From Halichondria panicea (lineage: Eukaryota > Porifera > Demospongiae > Suberitida > Halichondriidae), in contig NC_087379.1 of NCBI RefSeq assembly GCF_963675165.1, forward strand, positions 2,918,201 to 2,982,200: 64,000 nt of DNA. The letters run 5' to 3'. Position numbers and translations under genes: made by a program. Below the pieces are notes generated by a model. It ran no database searches, was not told where the DNA came from, and saw only the letters and a list, made by a program, of their open reading frames with translations. Positions 12,904 to 48,964 of this stretch are shown piece after piece; within the stretch, counting starts at the first letter, position 1; each line of letters opens with the position of its first letter.

Positions 12904-14449
12904 AGCTGCACTCGGCTTGGATTCATCCTTTTTGATATACCAGTATCAGTCTTGTTTATATACAAGGCCATTCACATGATTATGGTGACAGACTGACATG
13001 TTTATTGTGATAATTATTGTATGTCTGATTTTTTGAGCTAATAAACCCACGAGTATACACAATCTCTGTTGCTTGTGTATCAGGCAGCTTCCCGAGTCAG
13101 AAGCCATGCATGCACTTTTGATCGTTAATGGTACTCCTTCAGGTGTGGGGTAGCTGTGTTGACATACATCAGCATGGAGATACTGCCCTTGATGCATGGG
13201 TGGGTTGATGGCTATAATTATATATATGCACTCACAAAACACTTGGTTACACTAAATCACCATATTTGTACATTTTCCTCACATTTTCAATCTGAGGGCA
13301 TGCACAAAACACTTGGTTACACTAAATCACCATATTTGCACATTTTCCTCACATTTTCAATCTGAGGGCATGTCACCACATGCTCTAGATTTATTTTGGT
13401 GTAGAGTTGAAATTGTGTGATACACACATAATTATGTATCGAGCTATAGTATTATACTATAGCTATCCTGCAGGCGAACATAACCATGCAGGGCTATATG
13501 TAAACAGAAGTCTTTATGTGCCTCTGCATGTCAGATGTATGGGATGTTATGACACGACTGACTGTACATGCTCAGCTGTATGAGTTACTGCATGTATATG
13601 TATACACAAAATTATACTGATTATGTAGTATACATGTTGGGAGCATCCCATGGAAGGCTGCTGGATCTCCCTGAGATGTTTGAAGTTGCATTTGTTGTAT
13701 GTTTTCCAACACTTATTAAGTTAATGACTCCTTCCTTTCAAGGATATCACATTCAATGCATGAATCCGTGTTATTACAGTACATTACTACTACACATGCC
13801 TGTAGGCATGCATCTAATTGATTGCAAACTACATAGGGTGTTACAGTAGTCATCATTTGTATCGTATATAATGTCAGAAATTAATGCTGTTTATGTGAGC
13901 CGCTATCATGTCCCAAATACTTGTAATCATAATAATATATAATATTTTCGGAGCCTGAAAATTGCATAAATTTATACTCGCATATTATTCTAGCACTACA
14001 TTGTACGGTACCGAATAATAACATCATGGCCATTCTAATTCGTAGCCCATTTAGCACCAAAATATTATGGTAGCCACTTTTTAATTGACATGACTCCAGC
14101 AAAATGAATAAGCCACTGTATACATGTTAATGCGTGTGTCTTAGACTAGCCTTGACTCCAGCCCCTTCAGTCTGGAATCAAGGCTATGGTCTTAGATCTA
14201 CCTTTTTGGTCAGCCTAAATATTCCCTAACCCTAATTTAATAAATCTTGGCAATAAGATCTATTATGAGGCCACAAATCAGATGAACTTGGTAGGCTTTG
14301 TTGTGTAGCACATGCATGCACGTACACAATTAAGGTGTATAGATCTAATGGCCCCTCAATCTGTTTGATAGATAGCTGTATTTAGTTTAAAGTATATATA
14401 TAGGAAATAACTCAGTAGATACTATAGCCTGTGTGTAAATTCTGCTACA

Positions 14450-27800: not shown

Positions 27801-30800
27801 AGTACGATGGAGGAGCTCTGTTGCTCTGGGCTCAACAGGGAACCTATTCGGTGTATAGGGTACATCTTTAGAATGGAGAGGTCTTGCTCTGAGAGGTGGC
27901 CAAAATTGTTCAGAATCAATCTGTAAGGACCATGAAAATAATAAATAGCTAATAATCTGGAGCTATGTCAATAAATTTCGCAATAAACTGTTCAAGAGAT
28001 AACTGCCCCAGATTAGAAAACTCTATAATAATTATTATAGTCAAGATACCTGCTTTTTCTATAGAATATAAAATCCGGATTCACCTGACAGGAAAATCTC
28101 CAAAGAAAATTTGGACAAGATTTCCATACCCTGCATGCATAAAGAAATACAGTTAATGGAGTTTACTGTACCAAGATACAATGGCATGATGTTTCTTACC
28201 TCCCATTCTCTCTAGCAGGGCACCAGTGAGGAAGCCTTGGGTAGTCTCCATGACAATCACATTAGAGTTTGCCTGTACATTGCTCATGGTGAGCATCTGA
28301 GCGAGAGAATCCTCTCGGAGAAAGCTGAGGGGAGGGGTAGACTTTGGTACATGTAACACTGATACCATAACTAGTGATTAAGGCATTAGTTTTCCACTAA
28401 CTAGTACAAGTGCAACATTAACAAACAAGCCCTAGCGCAATCACTGAGAAAAATACAACAACAGCCAAGCACCCTACGTACAATCAAATGTAGGAATCCA
28501 CGCTACATGTACGTACAGTCAGCAACAAATGCGAAATTTCATTGCATGAACAACAGGAATGTAGACAATGGAACGTTCATCTGATACACTCACCATATCT
28601 TGGAGGGTGCTACATCTCGATACATTTCACACAGGAGTCGAGTCGAGGGTCTAATGATGCGGAACACTGGGTTGTGCCTGTTATGTGTGGAGGGGGTGGG
28701 CATGAGACACACAATATCAATATGCAGATTATGCGCTTTGGTTCAGACTTACTTCCTTTCTTTCTTGCGAATGTACTTTTCTTGAGAGAATTTTGTCTTC
28801 TCCTTGAATGAGCTGCTATGCTCAACGATGGTCTCAACAATAGCCTGTGGAACAAGTTCTTTCACACATCACGTTTTGCTGGTTGGCTTTCTACTGGTTA
28901 AAATTAACTGCTGCTACCAACTGTTACTAATAGTAGGAGTAGTGTATCTAATATGTCCGCCACAAAACTAAAATAGGCTTATGCATGCTATGTTACACAT
29001 ATACAGAATGGACAGATGTAAAAGCAATAATACTAGAAGGCGTACCTGACCTTTGACACCCTGTCCTTTCATTGTCACCACATCTTCCTCCGTGAGCCCT
29101 TGTGCCGCTCCGTCGTCAAATACTCCTCTGTTGTCAGCTGCACTGCTTGTCTCCCCTGTATGGAGTGAGTGTAGGGATGTGAGATGTATGTGGGGTGGGG
29201 GGAGTGGCGTTGGCTTGTTGCTAGCTTTATTGGGTATATATATACAGACATACAAAGTGGCAAATACAATATAGGTACATGTATGTTATGGCTTAAGGAT
29301 CAGTATGTCCATCCACCTTTTAGTTTGTCAGCCAGTTCTTCTGTATTGTCGCTCACAAGGACCAACTGTTTCATGTCAACCTTGAAACTGCTCCCATAGT
29401 AACATCCAAGCGCTCCATCGGGGTAGAAACCAACTTTGTCAAAGTTCAATTTCCTGTCAATGAAAGCTATTATAATTAAGGACTTTGATATGAGCATTAA
29501 CTTTTAAAGCTCGAAACTAGGACATTTTTCAACTATAGATAAGCTACTGCAAGAGATCTCATCTCTGATTCTGAGAATAAGTAGCCTAGTACCAAGAGCA
29601 GATAAGAAGAGAAGAGTGTCGAACTACCGATAATTCTACGCAACAACTATGCACAAAGTAACATGACTCGTACTAGCCTCCTTCACAAGGCCTAATTGTT
29701 AGGCCTGCTACTGACTGCTTGCGCATGCGCAAAATTATTGGATAATATTCCCGTAATGTTTCCCATTAAACTGAATTTTTACCCGAATTATATCCTGAAT
29801 AACATAATTATACAGACAAAGAATACTCTTCATAAAGTCAGACACAGAGCTATATAGCTAGCTAGCTAGAGACAGAGCTGTATTGGTTACAGCAGCAATT
29901 TCTTTCTGATAGAGTCGACTTTCACCAAGGTTAGTGTCAGATGGGCGTGGCCTATCCATGTAGCTATATAGGCTATTGTCAGCCTTCCCCTCCGTTCAGA
30001 GGATTGTTATCCACACTGTTGCAGGCTGTGAGTCCTTTGTTAACATAGTAGGCTAAGGGTAGCTATTAGAATGCTATCACACGGGCTACAATCACACCTC
30101 TATCCACTTTCTTCAATCCACTTCCGTTCGTTTTGACGTCATTGTTTTACTGAGCAAAATACAATGGTATCCGAATTACCCACTTTCTGGGTAATAGGTG
30201 GCGCATGCGCAAACAGTCGATACCAGGCCCTCTCTTAGCGGCCTGGAATCGAGGCTAGACTCGTACGTGATGAAGTATTGTGAAATTACTAGTAATCTCC
30301 TAGTAAATGTTAAACATTATGTTTTTAGGGGTGTGGTAATTGAACATGACATGATTCTAACTAGTCGTTCGCATTCAAGGTTCAGATTCTGCTCACTGCA
30401 CACTAATAGAAGTTAAATCACTTGCAATCTTTACTTACTGCTAACAATTTGTGTGTTGCGTAATGGATGCCCAAGCTTAATCAATTTGTGCGTTGCTCAC
30501 GTGTCATTGACTTTGTGCACAGTTGTCGTGTAGATCATCAGTAGTTCGACACTCTTCTTCTTACCGTCTTTCTTCTAATTACAGAACCACTCCAATAGGA
30601 AAACCAACTCACAGTTTTTTTTATTCTATTTATGAACCATTTCCATTTCGTAATTATTTTATTGTGGTGCTTAGTTAATTAGAACAGACGAACGTATTAG
30701 TTAGCACGAGCATAACCGGTTATAAAATACAGTTAGCATAGCTTCAAGCACATATTCTGCAAGCAGTTAAATGCTGCTGTTGATGATATACATTCAATAG

Positions 30801-41318: not shown

Positions 41319-44300
41319 TCAAGAAACAGTTGTTGTGATACTTATTCTATACACAGTTGATAGTTTAGTTTTGTTCCATCCTCCAATCACAAGGCACTCC
41401 GTGGTTGACAGTGACACAGTTGTAGCAAAGGCTACAGGATATGGTAGATCACCAACGTAGAGCCAGGAGTCCATCGAGGATGAGTAGGCGTACATCCTTT
41501 GAGTGGCTTTATTAGTAATCAGTCCACCAGCAGCAAAGATGGTGTTAGATATCGTTACAGGGGAGGGCCGGTAAAACGGTGTGTCGGATATTGTATTCCA
41601 GATGGAGTCGGCTTTGTTGGCACTCCCATCATCCTGTCGGTCTGCTGAGGTCAGCTTGTTGATTTGAGCAGCAAACACCTTGTTTAGATTCTTGCCGTCA
41701 TATCCCCCAACTAGGTACACTGTGTTGTTGTTCATGTAGACTATTCCTATTTGGTAACAACAAGCATATGGTAGTCTGTCTGTCTCGCTCCACTGGAAGG
41801 TGCCGATGTTGTAGATTTCAACATTATCAGTGTAGTAACCATAGCCCACTTCACCTCCTGCTACGATCAGATGTGTTGGGAGACTAACGACTGTCAATGA
41901 ACTCCTCGCTGTGGGCATGGGTGGGATCGTTCGTTTCCAGTTCCTTCCTTTGTTAAACACACGTACCACGTTGGATTTAGAGCGGGATGAATCTCTACCG
42001 CCAACTGCTACCAATTCACCGTTTACCTCTCCTAGACCAAACCATCGTACAGGAAGTCTGGGAAGAGTTGACCAGACGTTTTGTGGCGGATCATAACAGT
42101 GGACAGAGTAATTGCCATCATCGTCATCACAGTCTCCTCCACCATAGTAGACCTTGCCATTGATGGTTACCGCTAATCCACCAGACATTGCCACTGGAGT
42201 ACCAGAGCACTGACTGTAGGACACCCGAACCTGTAGGGACTGAAAAATACGGATAATCAATTTCTCGTGTGTTGCAGTTTGGAATGTAATGCTAATCTCA
42301 TGCATGTTGACAAGTATATTCCCAAAAAATTTGAGTATTCAGTCGCACACAAATAGAAATTATCATTCCAGTTTTTGTATTGGATTGGTGCTTGCATACT
42401 GTAAAAACGTAAAGCTATCAAGCCTCGAGGCCATCCCCTTTGGGACAACTTTCATTCTCAATACCGCAGCGTGAAATTTTCGATGAGCTTATTTTCACTG
42501 TTTTCGTGGGTTAGCAATAATCCTACACGAAAATTAACAAAAATAATTCTTTAAATTATCTGCTAATAACGTGCAAAGATTGTAGGCGTGGCTTCCGGTA
42601 AACAGTCAATGAAATGCTTTTAGAGGCCATTCCAAAAAATTTAACAGTCTCGAAAATTTCGCACTATATAATACCATAGATTGAAGAGTTAGAGGGATTG
42701 GAAACGGTTGGTACCCTCGAGTAATATCCGCGCTACACTGCGGTTTAATTGAGGCCATCACAACAATACCTATATTACACACAGTGCATAATCAACTGCT
42801 GTCCGTGCAACTCACTTATATTTCAAGGTGTATACCTAAGTGTAGTAGTTATACCTCGGTGCGCATGTGCAAGCGAGGTATACGGTAATGTGTTTGTGCA
42901 TGTGTGCAGGGGCGAATCTAGCAAATAGCAGAGGGTACTCAGCACCCCTCTGACCTTACAGTGGTTGATCCATAGACATGCATAACTGAATGGGAGGCTG
43001 AAGCAGCTACCTTGCAAGTTTTTCCTTTCGCTTTCATATTCACTTATCACTTATTTATACTTTTAGCTCTACTAATTCTACAGTAGTCTCTCGTTAATCC
43101 GGTCACCCTTTGGGCAAGCCAGAATAGCGAGGTGGCTGTATTTCGGGAAATAGCCGCGGCTTAAAAACGACATTACCTCAAATCTAATTACTACTTTTGC
43201 GGTTTTTGTCTCAAGGATAATGAAGCATAATGAATCATCCCCTGATCTCTATTTAAGTGTAATCCTGCCAAACCACACCCAAAACGTCAGATCCAGCTGT
43301 AATAAACGTTGAAAACCTAGTTTGAGACAGCCAGCACTGGCCAGTATATACGGAATAGTGAGTGGCCGTACTTTAGGGTGAGTTTTGTGCAGTAAACATA
43401 TAGCTAACAATCTGTGCCAAACCAAATGGCCGGTATATCGAGGTGGCCGTATTTCAGAGAGCCGAAATAGCGAGAGTCTACTGTATTCACTAAAAGGCTC
43501 TAAACCTCAGGCAAAATCTAATGTTCCAATGCGCATGCTGACTGTTTCACTGAAGTGACGACCTTTTTTTAAGGTAAAATGCAGAGTCCGTCCCGCTTGA
43601 GCCCTGCCTTGCCACTGGAACCCACCTGACAAGAATCTTAGATCCGCCACTGGTGTGTCGATGCAGCCATTACTTGAACTCGTTTTTAACAACAATCATG
43701 GTTGATCATTACCCACTCTTCAAGTTTGCATGCAGTAAAACAGTAAAAAAAGTAGCAGTAAATTAATGATAATTATAACGTGCGTAGCTTTACACCTCCA
43801 CCGAGGCATCAGCAATTTCATTATAACCAGCACGCTTACACGCTACATGTTCCATTAACTCTTGGGAACTTGTCTCTTTTTACTGGGTGTGGTCAAGAAC
43901 TACACGTGTTATAAATTGTTGAAAGAGATGACGTCTTGAGGAAACACAATTTTCTTATATTGAGAGAGTTCACAAGCAATCTGTAGCATGCCCTCTTTTC
44001 TCTTTGAAGGCCGGTGAAGGAGGCTAGGGAGGTCTTGGAAATGATGATTTATATGGATAGCAGGAGAGTAGTTAGAATATAGAATGCGAAAGGTAAGAGA
44101 GCAGCACTATGGTTTACAGGACTCGGTTTTGGACTAGAAATCAGAGTGGTCTTGACTGGCAAAGGGTGTCAAAAATATAAATAAGGTGGCACATTCCCAG
44201 AGACATGCACAAATCCTAAAATTCCTAAAAACAAGTTATGGTCAAGTTTTGGGAATTATACCATGGCTTCTGGTGAAGATTGATAGGTGCACATGCAATG

Positions 44301-47300
44301 CATGTGCATGTGTCTCCTGATTTGTGTGAAGGTCAGGTGAAGATTATAGGCCCTGATAAATTATGCTTGGAATAAAGTTTAGTGTAAATTGGCTAATCAA
44401 TAGGTGTATCGTAACAGAAATTCTTATGCTGCAACATTAGTTTTATGCTACATAGATACACTGTTCATAGTATATACAAGCTACTGGTACCAAGCATATC
44501 TGCGTGTGTATTGTTTATCCAATACACACGCAGATATCCTTGGTACAACTATTACATACCTGGTAAAAATGTTGCTTTTAAGCAACATTTTTACCAGGTT
44601 ACGCCCTATGAACGAGGCTATTAAAATAGCCTCGTTCATAGGGCGTAACGTGGATAGTTTTCGACGTTGCAGATTTGATGTAAAAGCATCACATGCACCA
44701 CTCCGTTTTCTAATCCCTCTAACTCTTCAATCTATGACGGTATATGTCAAAATTTCCTTGGCACTCAATTGAAACAGTAAACTTTGGACTTGGCACGTGG
44801 CAATAACAAGACAGTATCATACTATTTTGTTCACCCAGTTTTATAAAAGATTTTTAGGTAGGGGGGGAATGATGACGGCCGTAGGCCGCTGAAAATTTGG
44901 GGGGTCCGATATAATTATGTAATCTCCTGTCTGAACTGTATTATATGTGCTAGATAAAAATGGATTTTTTCTCAACTAATACTGACTGATACATGTAATT
45001 ATCCCTTCACTGTAAAAACACCACAATTTGGTATGACATCATTAAAGGGAAGGTACTATTTTTTTGCCTTAAATGTTGTTTGTGGGGTATAAAATAACCC
45101 TGAGACAAATTTGTTTTTCTGAAAATGACTTTTCAGAAAATGACTTTTCAGAGAAACAGGACTGTAGAAACACAATTTCAGGCTTAAAATTTTACTTCCT
45201 GTTGTGGTAAAATATGGACGCGGTCAAACGTGATGTAAGAGTAGGCATTTGTGCTGCATGCAAAATGGTATTCTGAGTTGAGTGTGTCGCAACTGGTTGC
45301 TCCAATAGATCTAGCAGTCATACAGTTCTCTCAGTTGAAATAAGAGTGGTCCTATGTACCAGAGCTCACTGGAAATAGAATCCATTTTGTGTACAGTGAA
45401 CACTCACAGATATATTGACCTCCCTTGCTCAGTTTGGGATCCAAAAGAGGAAGAAGCTAAAGTCTGAGGTCTGGAGCCATTCTAAATGTTTTCTATAAGG
45501 CAGTAATTCAGATATAAAACTGCCATGTTGTCCTGTAAAAAGAGAGGCCCTGAGATCAGAGTCATGGATGAAGAGAGAGCCCAAGAGAAGTGCCATATAG
45601 AAAAGCGAGAACGGAGACAGGTAATAGCTTCTTTTTTTGTTCAATCATATATAATAATAATAATACCTTGCTGCAGTTAGATACTTGATGCTTTACAAGA
45701 GACAACCTCTCTATACCATGACTCCTGCATGTATAGACCCGGCATGCAGCTGAGCCTCCTGATCAGACTACATGCATGCAGTACCTCTCTTACTATTTTC
45801 ATATTGGAACCAACTTCAGCAATGTCATGCAAAGACAAGTAAACTGAACCAAAACTTAGACGTGTTAGTAATGTAAAGATTACCGACAGTAACTCAAATC
45901 CCATCTATAAGGATGTCGATATTCAGTGTGAACTGCTTGGACCCATGCACCCCCCCCTCTGTATGACACCCTGCCTAGTGGTACAGCCACCTCTGAATAA
46001 AGGCCAGGCACCCAGGTCCCCCAAATGAACAGTTTGTGTACAAAACCTCTCAACAAAGACTACCTCTGTATAAAGGCCAAAACATTGTTCCCCAAAGGTG
46101 TCCGTTATAGGGAATTCTACTGTACAACTGTAACATAAATAATTTATGTGTGATGAGCTCACGTGTGGTTTGCTCGTCAGGTAGCCTCTGGTTTTGGTAA
46201 GCTGGTCGTTCAAACTCCTAATGGTGGTTGCATTCTTCTGAAGGTGAGTGTCCTTGGAGGCAATGATCGAATCTTTGTGAGCAATAGTAGAGTTTTTGTT
46301 TGATTGCTCCTGTTCCAGATTTGTTTCCAGTTGATCGATTTTCGTAGTTTTAGATACAAGTTCGTTTTGACTGTAGTTAAAGTTAGCAATATGTTGCTCC
46401 ACCTCTTCAGTGAGTTGCTTACATCTAGTTTCTATCTCGGTAATTCTAGCATCTTTGGAAAGAATAAATGCATCTTTCGTATTATCAGTTGTTTCTTTAT
46501 CTTCAAGCTGACCTTTAAGATCTTCAATCTCCAGTTTGAACTGATCAGTTTCCAATGAGTGCACCAACTGCATACGCTCAGCAGTACTTCCACTTTTTTT
46601 CTCTTGTCGTCTTTTCTCCTCCGCCAGTGCCTCATTCTCTCCTGCTTTCTCCTGGATTGCCGAGTCCTTCCTCACAACCTCCTCCGCCAGTACCTCGATC
46701 TCTCTTGCTTTCTCCTCGATTGCCGAGTCCTTCCTCACAACCTCCTCCGCCAGTACCTCGATCTCTCTTGCTTTCTCCTCGATTGCTGAGTCCTTCCTCA
46801 CAACCTCCTCCGCCAGTACCTCGATCTCTCTTGCTTTCTCCCCGATCTCTTTTGCTTTCTCCCCGATCTCTTTTGCTTTCTCCTCAATTGCCGAGTCCTT
46901 CCTCACAACCTCCTCCTCAAGCTCCCTCTTCTCTGTCAGTAGGGTACTCACTCGCTGGAGCATATCCACTCTGTTCTCAAAGGATGGAGGGTGTTCGAGT
47001 ACCACACCCACCATGCGACTGACTATCTCCGCTGCTGTAGGCCTTTGCTGAGGATTGTTGCTGAGACAGCGCATGATGAGGTCCATCAGAGGGTGGTCTG
47101 GGATGATCATTAGAAGAAACTCTTCACGTCGTTCAGCTTCTGTCACTGGTATCAGACCATTGGGATTAGCAGGATTGATTCTGGTGGGACCAACCTTTGG
47201 TAGTGGCCACTCTGCTGTGAAGGTGTGAATCATCATGACCCCAAAGGAGAACACATCCACACTGGTGTTGTAGTGGGGGTCGGCAACCATCACTTCGGGG

Positions 47301-47865
47301 GGCATGTACGCTGGGGTGCCAGGCGTCTCCGTCATTCGACTAACTTGAAGGGGGGTAAAGTTTAAGTTCGAGCAACCCCCAGATCGGATATCTTGGCTGT
47401 CATGTTGGTGGACAAAAGAACGTTGTTGGCTGAGAGGTCTCTGTGCACAATGACCGGTGTTTGGCCATGGAGGGAGACCAGACCCAGTGAGACGTCATGG
47501 AGGATGGAGAAGTTGATCTCATCAGGGAGAATACCGTAGCGTTCGAGACAGCTGGTCAAGTTGGTGGGGAGGAACTCCATGACTAGGATGGGGAATTGAG
47601 AGCCTTCCTCAAAACAGACTCCCAGAAACTGGACAATGTTGGGGTGCCTAGTTTGACTGAGCAGGTGACACTCCTCCAGATACCTTCGTGCTGCATGCCC
47701 GATTCCAGTCTCGTAGAAAACTCGGTAAAGCTTCTTGCCGGCACATTTCAGTCCTTGATACTCTAGCTCCATGACAACAGCGTAGGAACCGTGTCCCAAC
47801 TCATTCTTGGTGATGTGAATTTGTCTCAAGATAAACTGCTTAAAATCTTGTGGATTTACCGCCAT
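41319..47865 (-). CDS. Protein kinase / coiled-coil / Kelch-repeat protein (one-base frameshift)
   Basis: Two exons. Exon 1 (47,865-46,163) encodes a kinase domain: glycine-loop region LGHGSYAVVMELE, lysine in CAGKKLY, catalytic loop VIVHRDLSANNVLL, DLG in place of DFG, activation segment ending MTETPGTPAYMPPE, and VDVFSFGVMMIH. A long coiled coil follows, with four degenerate 21-residue repeats (EEVVRKDSAIEEKAREIEVLA type). After a 3.9 kb intron, exon 2 (42,239-41,319) encodes six Kelch blades (GG dyads in YYGGGDC, VAVGGRD, IVAGGEV, YLVGGYD, FAAGGLI, LVIGGWN) ending in a stop. The junction is phase 0 on both sides. Between DLGVAR and LNFTPLQVSRMTETPG one base is missing (about 47,356-47,390), creating a TAA. 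It may be a recent lesion or a sequence error. The protein is probably a cytoplasmic signalling kinase of the tyrosine-kinase-like group; its substrate is unknown. Confidence 0.78.
42465..42670. mobile_element. MITE related to the 56,428 element
   Basis: It shares GTGAAATTTTCGATGAGCTT, CGTGGGTTAGCAAT, GGCGTGGCTTCCGGTAAAC and a terminal TCTCGAAAATTTCGCACTAT with 56,428-56,656, mostly in inverse orientation. It lies in the kinase/Kelch gene intron. Confidence 0.65.
43081..43483. mobile_element. 403-bp pogo-type MITE with TA duplication
   Basis: The ends CAGTAGTCTCTCGTTAATCC and (reverse) CAGTAGACTCTCGCTATTTC are imperfect inverted repeats, flanked by TA on both sides. The interior repeats the end motif (GGTGGCTGTATTTCGGG, GGTGGCCGTATTTCAG). 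Non-autonomous. Confidence 0.8.
44488..44648. repeat. Three consecutive near-perfect hairpins
   Basis: Hairpin 1 is at 44,488-44,545 (26-bp arms, one mismatch, loop TTTATC). Hairpin 2 is at 44,559-44,598 (19-bp perfect arms, 2-base loop; arm CCTGGTAAAAATGTTGCTT). Hairpin 3 is at 44,599-44,648 (24-bp perfect arms, 2-base loop; arm starts TTACGCCCTATGAACG). Hairpins 2 and 3 abut without a spacer. The arms are unrelated to one another in sequence. Confidence 0.9.
45975..46122. mobile_element. Inverse-orientation copy of the 17,324 TIR element
   Basis: Its reverse complement runs CAGTAGAATTCCCTATAACG, ACACCTTTGGGGAAC, AATGTTTTGGCC, matching 17,324-17,492. It lies just downstream of the coiled-coil exon donor, inside the kinase/Kelch intron. 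Confidence 0.75.
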
Positions 47866-48239: not shown

Positions 48240-48964
48240 TAGAGAGGACGTTGTTACCATTTTAATTATTGCATTCTAATCACGTGCACTGTAAACCGCG
48301 TGAATGTGTCGATCATAGCCGCACACAAATGCTCGGTGACGCGCCTGCGCCGACTCTCCATCACCTTATCTTCTGAACACAGCAAACACAGCACACACAT
48401 TGAACACAGCCAAAACACAGCAGACACAAAAACACAGCAGACACAGTGAACACAGCAGACACATTGAACACAGCAAACACAGCAGACACATGCAGTGAAC
48501 ACAGCAGACACATTGAACACAGCGAACACAGCAGACACAAGGACACAGCAGGCACAGTCAACACAGCAGACACAAAAACACAGCAGACACAGTGGACACA
48601 GTCAACACAGCAGACACAGTGGACACACTGGACACAGCAGACACAGTCAACACAGCAGACACAGTGGACACAGCAGACACAGTGGACACAGTCAACACAG
48701 CAGACACAGTGTTGACAGTCAACACAGCAGACACAGTGGACACAGTGAACACAGCAGACACAATCAACACAGCAGACACAGTGGACACAGTCAACACAGC
48801 AAACACATTGGACACAGCGAACACACTGTCGACGTTGAGCACAGCACCAGAAGATAAGCCGATCGAGAGTCGGCACGTCACAGAGTATTTGATGATCGGC
48901 GCACGTCCACGCGGTTTACAGTGCACGTGATTAGAATGCAATAGGTAACAACGTCCTCTCTCTA
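48240..48964. mobile_element. TIR element packed with a minisatellite
   Basis: Outer inverted arms of about 60-100 bp run TAGAGAGGACGTTGTTACC, ATTGCATTCTAATCACGTGC, ACTGTAAACCGCGTG on the left, with the complement on the right (GCGGTTTACAGTGCACGTGA, TTAGAATGCAATAGG, ending near CTCTCTCTA). Everything between is the minisatellite at 48,376-48,845. No transposase is present. It sits about 375 bp upstream of the kinase/Kelch start codon. Confidence 0.8.
48376..48845. repeat. Minisatellite, CACAGCAGACACAGT/GGACACAGTCAA units
   Basis: Some 470 bp of degenerate tandem units built from CACAGCAGACA, CAGTGGACA, CAGTCAACA and CATTGAACA. The unit is a multiple of 9 bases, so all six frames are long and open. 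These frames (Cys/Val-rich or Thr/Asp-rich) are a consequence of the repeat and not genes. Confidence 0.93.

What the first reader, a model, noticed from the sequence alone, without database searches (positions are those of the whole stretch)
44488..44648. Three back-to-back long hairpins with unrelated arms
Arms of 26, 19 and 24 bp, two of them perfect with 2-base loops, lie within 161 bp, and hairpins 2 and 3 abut exactly. Random decay would quickly spoil such palindromes, so they are either very recent or maintained. They are not copies of one another, which argues against simple tandem duplication. Options include transposon end structures, a structured RNA, or templated-switch repair.
Basis: seen in the sequence. 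Interest (0 to 1): 0.72.

Follow-up and report, generated by a model that had tools for sequence, protein, structure and literature searches.

The report
Transposon hairpin beside DNA-repair scar
Three tight hairpins in a row turn out to be the old end-hairpin of one jumping element followed by what looks like a one-off repair scar in a second element, where the DNA on both sides of a single point was copied backwards; the process is known, but this double form of it is unusual.

Summary
The three hairpins are real: arms of 27 (1 mismatch), 20 and 25 nt, loops of 6, 2 and 2; simulated sequence gave none. They have two origins.

H1 is the 3' terminal hairpin of a dispersed transposon family (B). 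Most measured copies have imperfect arms and longer loops; here the arms have become nearly identical.

H2 and H3 lie in a high-copy, about 516-bp TIR transposon (MITE A). In the 29 other copies examined, their arms X and Y adjoin as plain sequence (X shortened in 3), without a palindrome. The window copy reads X-rcX-rcY-Y. Both hairpin tips sit at the same ancestral point (GCTT^AATAG) with the same tip hexamer (TTTTAA), and the palindromes share two bases, GT. So one templated-repair event probably made both. Another MITE A copy (L019) carries its own palindrome.

Best mechanism: fold-back templating at one break, either as two hairpin-sealed ends reopened or as serial template switching. I found no evidence for a structured RNA.

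Closest known: short-range template-switch mutations, arm homogenisation, hairpin-capped breaks. The paired footprint at a TTAA, in a genome with many piggyBac matches, is the unusual point.

The parts
42675..42853 (+). MITE A, left end with TIR CATAGATTGAAGAG (consensus 1-192)
   Evidence: BLAST with a typed family consensus, 85%
42854..43822 (.). Sequence inside MITE A that the family consensus lacks, read as later insertion(s); about 43079-43486 belongs to a repeat with dozens of other copies
   Evidence: gap in A; 40 of 2942 candidates scored
43823..43971 (+). MITE A, middle part, ending GAGAGAGT(T)
   Evidence: 68% with gaps
43972..44556 (+). Composite insertion in MITE A between T and T of GAGT^TACC (site uninterrupted in the 29 other A copies examined); left boundary uncertain by 1-2 nt; carries the B-family 3' end
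43973..44026 (+). Fragment resembling a Helitron 3' end (hairpin GGCCTTC..GAAGGCC, 11 nt, then CTA; next base A or G in 7 of 9 copies shown, C in 2)
44402..44461 (.). 60-bp nested insert, one other match in the genome (C5, 98%)
44462..44557 (+). 3' end of dispersed element family B, ending GGTACAACTATTACA(T)
44487..44546 (+). Hairpin H1 (27-nt arms, 1 mismatch, 6-nt loop TTTATC): B-family 3' terminal hairpin with homogenised arms
44558..44577 (+). X: left arm of H2, original MITE A sequence
44558..44599 (+). Hairpin H2 = X-TT-rcX, perfect
44578..44624 (+). Extra 47 bp absent from the other copies: TT-rcX joined at shared GT to rcY-AA
   Evidence: 29 of 29 A copies lack it; only self matches across the joint among candidates scored
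44598..44649 (+). Hairpin H3 = rcY-AA-Y, perfect; shares GT (44598-44599) with H2
44625..44736 (+). Y and the rest of MITE A to its right TIR (..CTCTTCAATCTATG)

Best explanation
H1 is the old 3' terminal hairpin of a mobile element (family B) that landed in MITE A. H2 and H3 are one DNA-repair scar in the MITE sequence next to it. Shown: other copies read X+Y without palindromes, and the window copy reads X-TT-rcX-rcY-AA-Y; both tips map to the same ancestral point, TT^AA; read on the strand that would fold, both tips are the same hexamer TTTTAA; the two palindromes overlap in a 2-nt microhomology (GT; CCAsGT matches 5 of 6). Inferred: a break at TTAA; each end was extended by TT and folded back (or was sealed as a hairpin with a TT loop); each was opened or copied 20-25 nt from the tip to give a 3' tail; the tails were joined by microhomology end joining. 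A two-step template switch at a stalled fork gives the same product. H1's arms were made nearly identical by the related process of arm-to-arm templating. No function is needed to explain the persistence: the scar may simply be young.
For: MITE A: TIR element, about 516 bp, 7-bp target duplication in 19 of 22 TIR pairs tabulated, the 22 rows covering 21 of the 29 copies fetched. Only self matches cross the rcX-rcY joint (1 of 1 candidate, 40 of 229 scored). Arms identical: 20/20 and 25/25. MITE A copy L019 has its own palindrome (34/34, loop 4), absent from 6 of 6 copies compared; so 2 of 30 copies carry one inside the element at these limits. H1: the window, L003 and L006 pair 26/27, 27/27 and 26/27 with loops of 6, 9 and 14; 10 other copies with both arms pair 20-23 of 26-27 with loops of 19-101; L046 and L054 lack a full right arm. 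The window has a complementary change on both sides (family CCATGG; window left CCAAGC, right CCTTGG), and L006 has each arm patched with letters of the other. Published mechanism for creating and correcting hairpins: PMC8794818 (abstract and passages), PMC8604942 (abstract).
Against: The ancestral state is inferred from other copies of the repeat, not from an allele of this locus. The window's MITE A copy lacks a recognisable 7-bp duplication and carries other insertions, so its history is not fully resolved. The two mechanisms (hairpin-sealed break, serial switching) are not separated by sequence. Two-nucleotide loops are tight for plain fold-back priming. L019's palindrome is not at TTAA, so a TTAA break is not a general rule here. 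H2's outer edge coincides within 1 nt with the family B insertion boundary, which neither version predicts. L003, L006 and the window might share part of their arm correction by descent; no tree was made.
Confidence: 0.82

Rival explanations
1. Serial template switching at a replication fork: the polymerase left the template at TT^AA, copied X backwards, jumped by GT microhomology to the end of Y, copied Y backwards, then returned to the exit point.
For: Short-range template switching is documented, and its majority rearrangement patterns create single inverted repeats (PMC7954356 passages). L019 fits one ordinary four-point event. CCAsGT homeology at the inner joint.
Against: The four-point model has one backward fragment; this needs two, and no contiguous YX donor was found among the candidates scored. 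It does not by itself explain the identical TTTTAA tips.
Confidence: 0.38
2. Two-ended hairpin-capped break: both ends of one TTAA-centred break were sealed with a TT loop, opened 20-25 nt away to leave 3' tails, and joined by GT.
For: Shared point, identical tips, similar arm lengths, no ancestral base lost, microhomology joint. Hairpin-capped ends after breaks, and their proposed cleavage by Mre11 with Sae2, are described in PMC10622511 (passages). Two-base partial fill-in of a 5'-TTAA overhang gives the tip exactly (own reasoning).
Against: Opening so far from the tip on both sides is not usual (recalled). No independent evidence of the break.
Confidence: 0.42
3. Functional structured RNA or microRNA cluster maintained by selection.
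For: Very stable predicted RNA fold (z -17.9).
Against: No Rfam match over gathering score. H2-H3 found in one repeat copy only. H1 belongs to a dispersed DNA repeat family. Conservation of H2/H3 in other species could not be tested.
Confidence: 0.04
4. Assembly or library artefact (chimeric inverted reads).
For: Only one assembly is held; reads not seen.
Against: Boundaries fit ancestral TE sequence and a microhomology. At least one other palindrome in this genome is shared by its repeat family (L023 type, present in 8 of 8 relatives fetched), so not all such palindromes are artefacts.
Confidence: 0.06

Closest known systems
Short-range template-switch mutations that create and correct hairpins (Monttinen and Loytynoja 2022, PMC8794818, abstract and passages; four-point model as described in PMC7954356, passages)
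   Same: Single event makes a perfect stem from a local reverse-complement copy; existing stems are corrected with paired changes
   Different: Here two backward copies flank one point and are joined to each other; a single four-point event has only one
Arm homogenisation of imperfect inverted repeats (PMC8604942, abstract)
   Same: H1: two arms of an imperfect hairpin become nearly identical
   Different: Here in a transposon terminal hairpin, together with a shorter loop than in the other copies
Hairpin-capped double-strand breaks and fold-back inverted duplication (PMC10622511, passages)
   Same: Ends folded back, mismatches corrected, hairpin opening proposed
   Different: The yeast products are large inverted duplications with terminal deletion from one end; here both ends, 20-25 nt, rejoined locally
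Helitron2 / Helentron / DINE-1 elements (PMC5148889 and PMC4067079, passages)
   Same: Family B: no target duplication seen by eye, T^T insertion site in the window, 3' palindrome, short inverted sequence at 5' start and near 3' end
   Different: 3' inverted copy only about 8 nt from the end (about 38-60 bp in mite HINEs); no autonomous partner linked; the window copy lacks the family's 5' end

Membership tests
Template-switch mutation (four-point) | Derived sequence is a local reverse-complement copy absent in the ancestor | tested here: met
   29 of 29 A copies examined lack it; arms exact
Template-switch mutation (four-point) | One contiguous backward fragment (points 2 to 3) explains the change | tested here: not met
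   Insert is rc(YX); ancestor is XY; no contiguous donor among candidates scored. L019 does meet it
Hairpin-capped break repair | Palindromes centred on the break point on both sides | tested here: met
   Both tips at GCTT^AATAG, same hexamer
Hairpin-capped break repair | A break at that point | not testable with these tools
   History only
piggyBac (TTAA) excision footprint | TTAA at the point and TTAA-specific transposase in the genome | tested here: met
   26 of 29 copies have TTAA there; 122 PF13843 matches, 36 with the same score and a 556-aa frame
piggyBac (TTAA) excision footprint | An element once inserted at this TTAA | not tested
   No allele or relative of the locus available
Non-autonomous TIR transposon (MITE) for A | TIRs and fixed-length target duplication, short and without a transposase gene | tested here: met
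   33-nt TIR in the typed consensus; 7-bp duplication in 19 of 22 rows; not visible for the window copy. Coding capacity of A was not scanned separately; 516 bp is too short for a transposase
Helitron2/Helentron-like for B | Insertion at T^T without duplication | tested here: inconclusive
   Window junctions fit GAGT^TACC; other copies read by eye only; the window 5' junction is not the family 5' end
Helitron2/Helentron-like for B | 3' palindrome and asymmetric terminal inverted repeat | tested here: met
   Both 3' hairpin arms in 13 of 15 copies; TTGTACCATG / CATGGTACAA read by eye in part of the copies
Helitron2/Helentron-like for B | Rep-helicase partner with the same ends | tested here: inconclusive
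   21 Helitron_like_N matches in genome; only one place fetched (L087), where B ends gave one weak match (E 0.22)
Known structured RNA | Match to an Rfam model | tested here: not met
   0 matches at gathering score

The most novel reading that the evidence does not exclude
H2-H3 is the footprint of a failed 'seamless' excision of a TTAA-specific (piggyBac-type) transposon: the two 5'-TTAA donor ends were each filled in by two bases, which makes them incompatible, then sealed as TT-loop hairpins, reopened 20-25 nt away as 3' tails and joined by microhomology, giving X-rcX-rcY-Y. If so, TTAA excision can leave signature double palindromes that can be counted genome-wide.
Probability: 0.15. Interest if true: 0.65.

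Novelty: new variant of a known kind. Interest (0 to 1): 0.4.

Why it matters
Perfect long hairpins are raw material for small RNAs and sources of instability, and how they arise is an active question. This locus shows in one place a new hairpin pair that looks made in a single step and an old hairpin kept near-perfect by copying one arm from the other, with the ancestral state readable from many repeat copies. The double footprint around one point gives a specific pattern to look for in other genomes and in break-repair assays.

Tried and rejected
Tandem duplication of one hairpin: rejected, arms unrelated between H1 and H2/H3. Inversion of XY: rejected, order is rcX-rcY, not rcY-rcX. Nested insertion of a palindromic element at X|Y: rejected, the added letters are local X and Y only, and no such element was found elsewhere among candidates scored. 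L023 as a second case of a new palindrome: rejected, it is a family feature (8 of 8 relatives fetched carry a palindrome there). The idea, written in my notebook, that 43972 was the 5' end of the H1 element: rejected, 43973-44026 resembles a Helitron 3' end. Rfam: nothing. A paper search for template switching plus sponge listed 4 papers, none relevant by title ('sponge' was a guess); the organism was not identified. Notebook corrections: the third checkpoint says 18 of 22 duplications and about 37 piggyBac matches; the recounts are 19 of 22 and 36.

Full report
Observation. The stretch holds three near-perfect inverted repeats: H1 44487-44513/44520-44546 (27 nt, 1 mismatch, 6-nt loop), H2 44558-44577/44580-44599 (20/20, loop TT) and H3 44598-44622/44625-44649 (25/25, loop AA) (one search gives slightly different limits). 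H2 and H3 share the two bases 44598-44599 (GT). Five simulated 64-kb sequences gave no such palindrome; the window has four, counting one at 14147. The 122-aa open frame across the site has no Pfam match at E 0.001, and no Rfam family matches the window at its gathering score.

Setting. The window lies in a 131-Mb genome in 39 contigs, taken as eukaryotic from that size and from its Helitron-type elements; the organism was not identified. The hairpins sit in a nest of mobile elements. The outermost is a copy of a high-copy TIR element, here called MITE A: about 516 bp, 33-nt TIR (CATAGATTGAAGAG...), 7-bp target duplication in 19 of 22 TIR pairs tabulated; these rows cover 21 of the 29 copies fetched, the others lacking an exact TIR pair. 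The 29 come from a capped list (40 of 296 candidates scored). The window copy runs from 42675 to 44736, is interrupted at 42854-43822 and at about 43972-44556, and shows no matching 7-bp duplication. The second interruption falls between T and T of GAGT^TACC; that site is uninterrupted in the 29 other copies. It is composite: it starts with a 54-nt fragment resembling a Helitron 3' end (hairpin, 11 nt, then CTA, the next base A or G in 7 of 9 copies shown and C in 2), holds a 60-bp nested piece with one other match in the genome, and ends with the 3' end of a dispersed family, B.

H1. The B family's last 95 bp or so hold this hairpin. In one search I measured 15 copies, the window included. 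In the window, L003 and L006 the arms pair 26/27, 27/27 and 26/27 with loops of 6, 9 and 14. In 10 copies with both arms they pair 20-23 of 26-27 with loops of 19-101. L046 and L054 lack a full right arm. After CAATACAC the usual right arm reads CCTTG where the partner of the left arm would be ACGCAG. In the window that patch matches the left arm, and a further pair differs from the family on both sides (family CCATGG; window left CCAAGC, right CCTTGG, the left G-to-C being the one mismatch). In L006 each arm carries letters of the other. So the arms appear to copy each other. PMC8604942 (abstract read) describes such homogenisation of inverted-repeat arms by template switching, and PMC8794818 (abstract and passages) attributes creation of hairpins, and less certainly their maintenance, to template switching. 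No tree of B copies was made, so part of the correction may be shared by descent. B may be a Helitron2/Helentron-like element (3' palindrome, asymmetric terminal inverted repeat, T^T site, no duplication seen by eye; compare PMC5148889 and PMC4067079, passages). Several defining features are only partly tested, and the window copy lacks the family's 5' end.

H2 and H3. In MITE A the sequence X (ACCYGG...TTGCTT, with small length variation) is followed directly by Y (AATAGCCTCGTTCATAGGGCGTAAC). In the 29 other copies Y follows the X region directly, with TTAA at the point in 26; in 3 (L014, L020, L025) X is shortened. The closest copy, L028, differs by one base from the window's X+Y. A scan found no palindrome at this place in those loci. 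In the window the order is X-TT-rcX-rcY-AA-Y. Searches of the genome find only the window itself across the rcX-rcY joint (1 candidate, 1 scored; 40 of 229 scored). Three facts tie the two hairpins into one event. Both tips fall on the same ancestral bond, TT^AA. Read on the folding strand the tips are GC-TTTTAA-GC and CTA-TTTTAA-TAG, the same hexamer. And the palindromes meet at a GT present in both donor sequences (CCAGGT against CCACGT). No ancestral base is lost.

Mechanism (inferred). A break at TTAA with both ends folded back explains all of this. A 5'-TTAA overhang filled by two bases (TT) and then closed gives exactly the observed tip on each side; opening 20-25 nt from the tip leaves 3' tails that can join by GT. 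Hairpin-capped ends, and their proposed cleavage by Mre11 with Sae2, are described for yeast (PMC10622511, passages). The alternative is a polymerase making two backward copies in succession before returning. The four-point model described in PMC7954356 (passages) has one backward fragment, so this case would need two. I cannot separate the two by sequence and put them near 0.42 and 0.38.

Is TTAA meaningful? TTAA occurs at 312 of 64,000 window positions, so a random point would fall in its centre about 0.5% of the time; any palindromic tetramer would about 6% of the time by simple counting. The genome has 122 matches to the piggyBac transposase domain, 36 of them with the same score and a 556-aa open frame, several in clusters spaced about 4 kb, so recent amplification is likely. 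piggyBac excision leaves complementary TTAA ends at the donor site that allow seamless repair (PMC7351741, passages). A failed rejoining is therefore a specific, testable idea, but nothing here shows that an element sat at this TTAA.

Generality. Among 30 MITE A copies (29 plus the window) two carry a palindrome inside the element at the limits used: this one and L019 (34/34, loop CGCT, absent in 6 of 6 copies compared). L019 fits a single switch and is not at TTAA. In 64 loci (204,229 bp; all brought in by repeat or Helitron matches, so not random; 47 checked for overlap in the script, 17 by their listed places) 9 palindromes met the same limits, one of low complexity; three second-order Markov simulations of that size gave none. 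Not all are new: the L023 palindrome belongs to its repeat family (8 of 8 relatives fetched). The others were not resolved.

Unexplained. The outer edge of H2 lies one base from the insertion boundary of the composite element. Either copying stopped there by the microhomology, or the element inserted at the foot of an existing hairpin. The order of the two events is open.

Verdict. H1 is a transposon end hairpin with corrected arms. H2-H3 is most likely a one-off templated-repair scar of a known kind in an unusual paired form. I found no evidence for a functional RNA.

Noticed in passing
L019:1264-1335: Another MITE A copy with its own perfect 34-bp palindrome (loop CGCT), absent from the 6 copies compared.
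   Followed up: yes
44402-44461: 60-bp piece with one other match (C5:6133774-6133833, 98%), inserted inside family B with a possible 3-bp TGT repeat; could be filler copied during repair.
   Followed up: partly
44557/44558: The outer edge of H2 coincides within 1 nt with the boundary of the composite insertion; order of events unknown.
   Followed up: partly
genome G000: 122 piggyBac-domain matches; 36 share the same score and a 556-aa frame, several in clusters spaced about 4 kb.
   Followed up: no
29674-29722: Second match to the Helitron-like 3' end, minus strand.
   Followed up: no
41319-42305 (-): 328-aa open frame with kelch repeats.
   Followed up: partly
45923-47865 (-): Protein kinase domain spread over two open frames, with a repetitive coiled-coil-like tail (coiled coil by eye).
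   Followed up: partly
48266-48941: Short-period repetitive stretch open in several frames on both strands, probably a minisatellite (by eye).
   Followed up: no
L023:476-526 and relatives L088-L095: Repeat family with an inherited long hairpin; L023 lacks the tip of it.
   Followed up: yes
L033:1249-1296: 23-bp perfect palindrome, loop GA; no other match across it among 40 of 53 candidates scored.
   Followed up: partly
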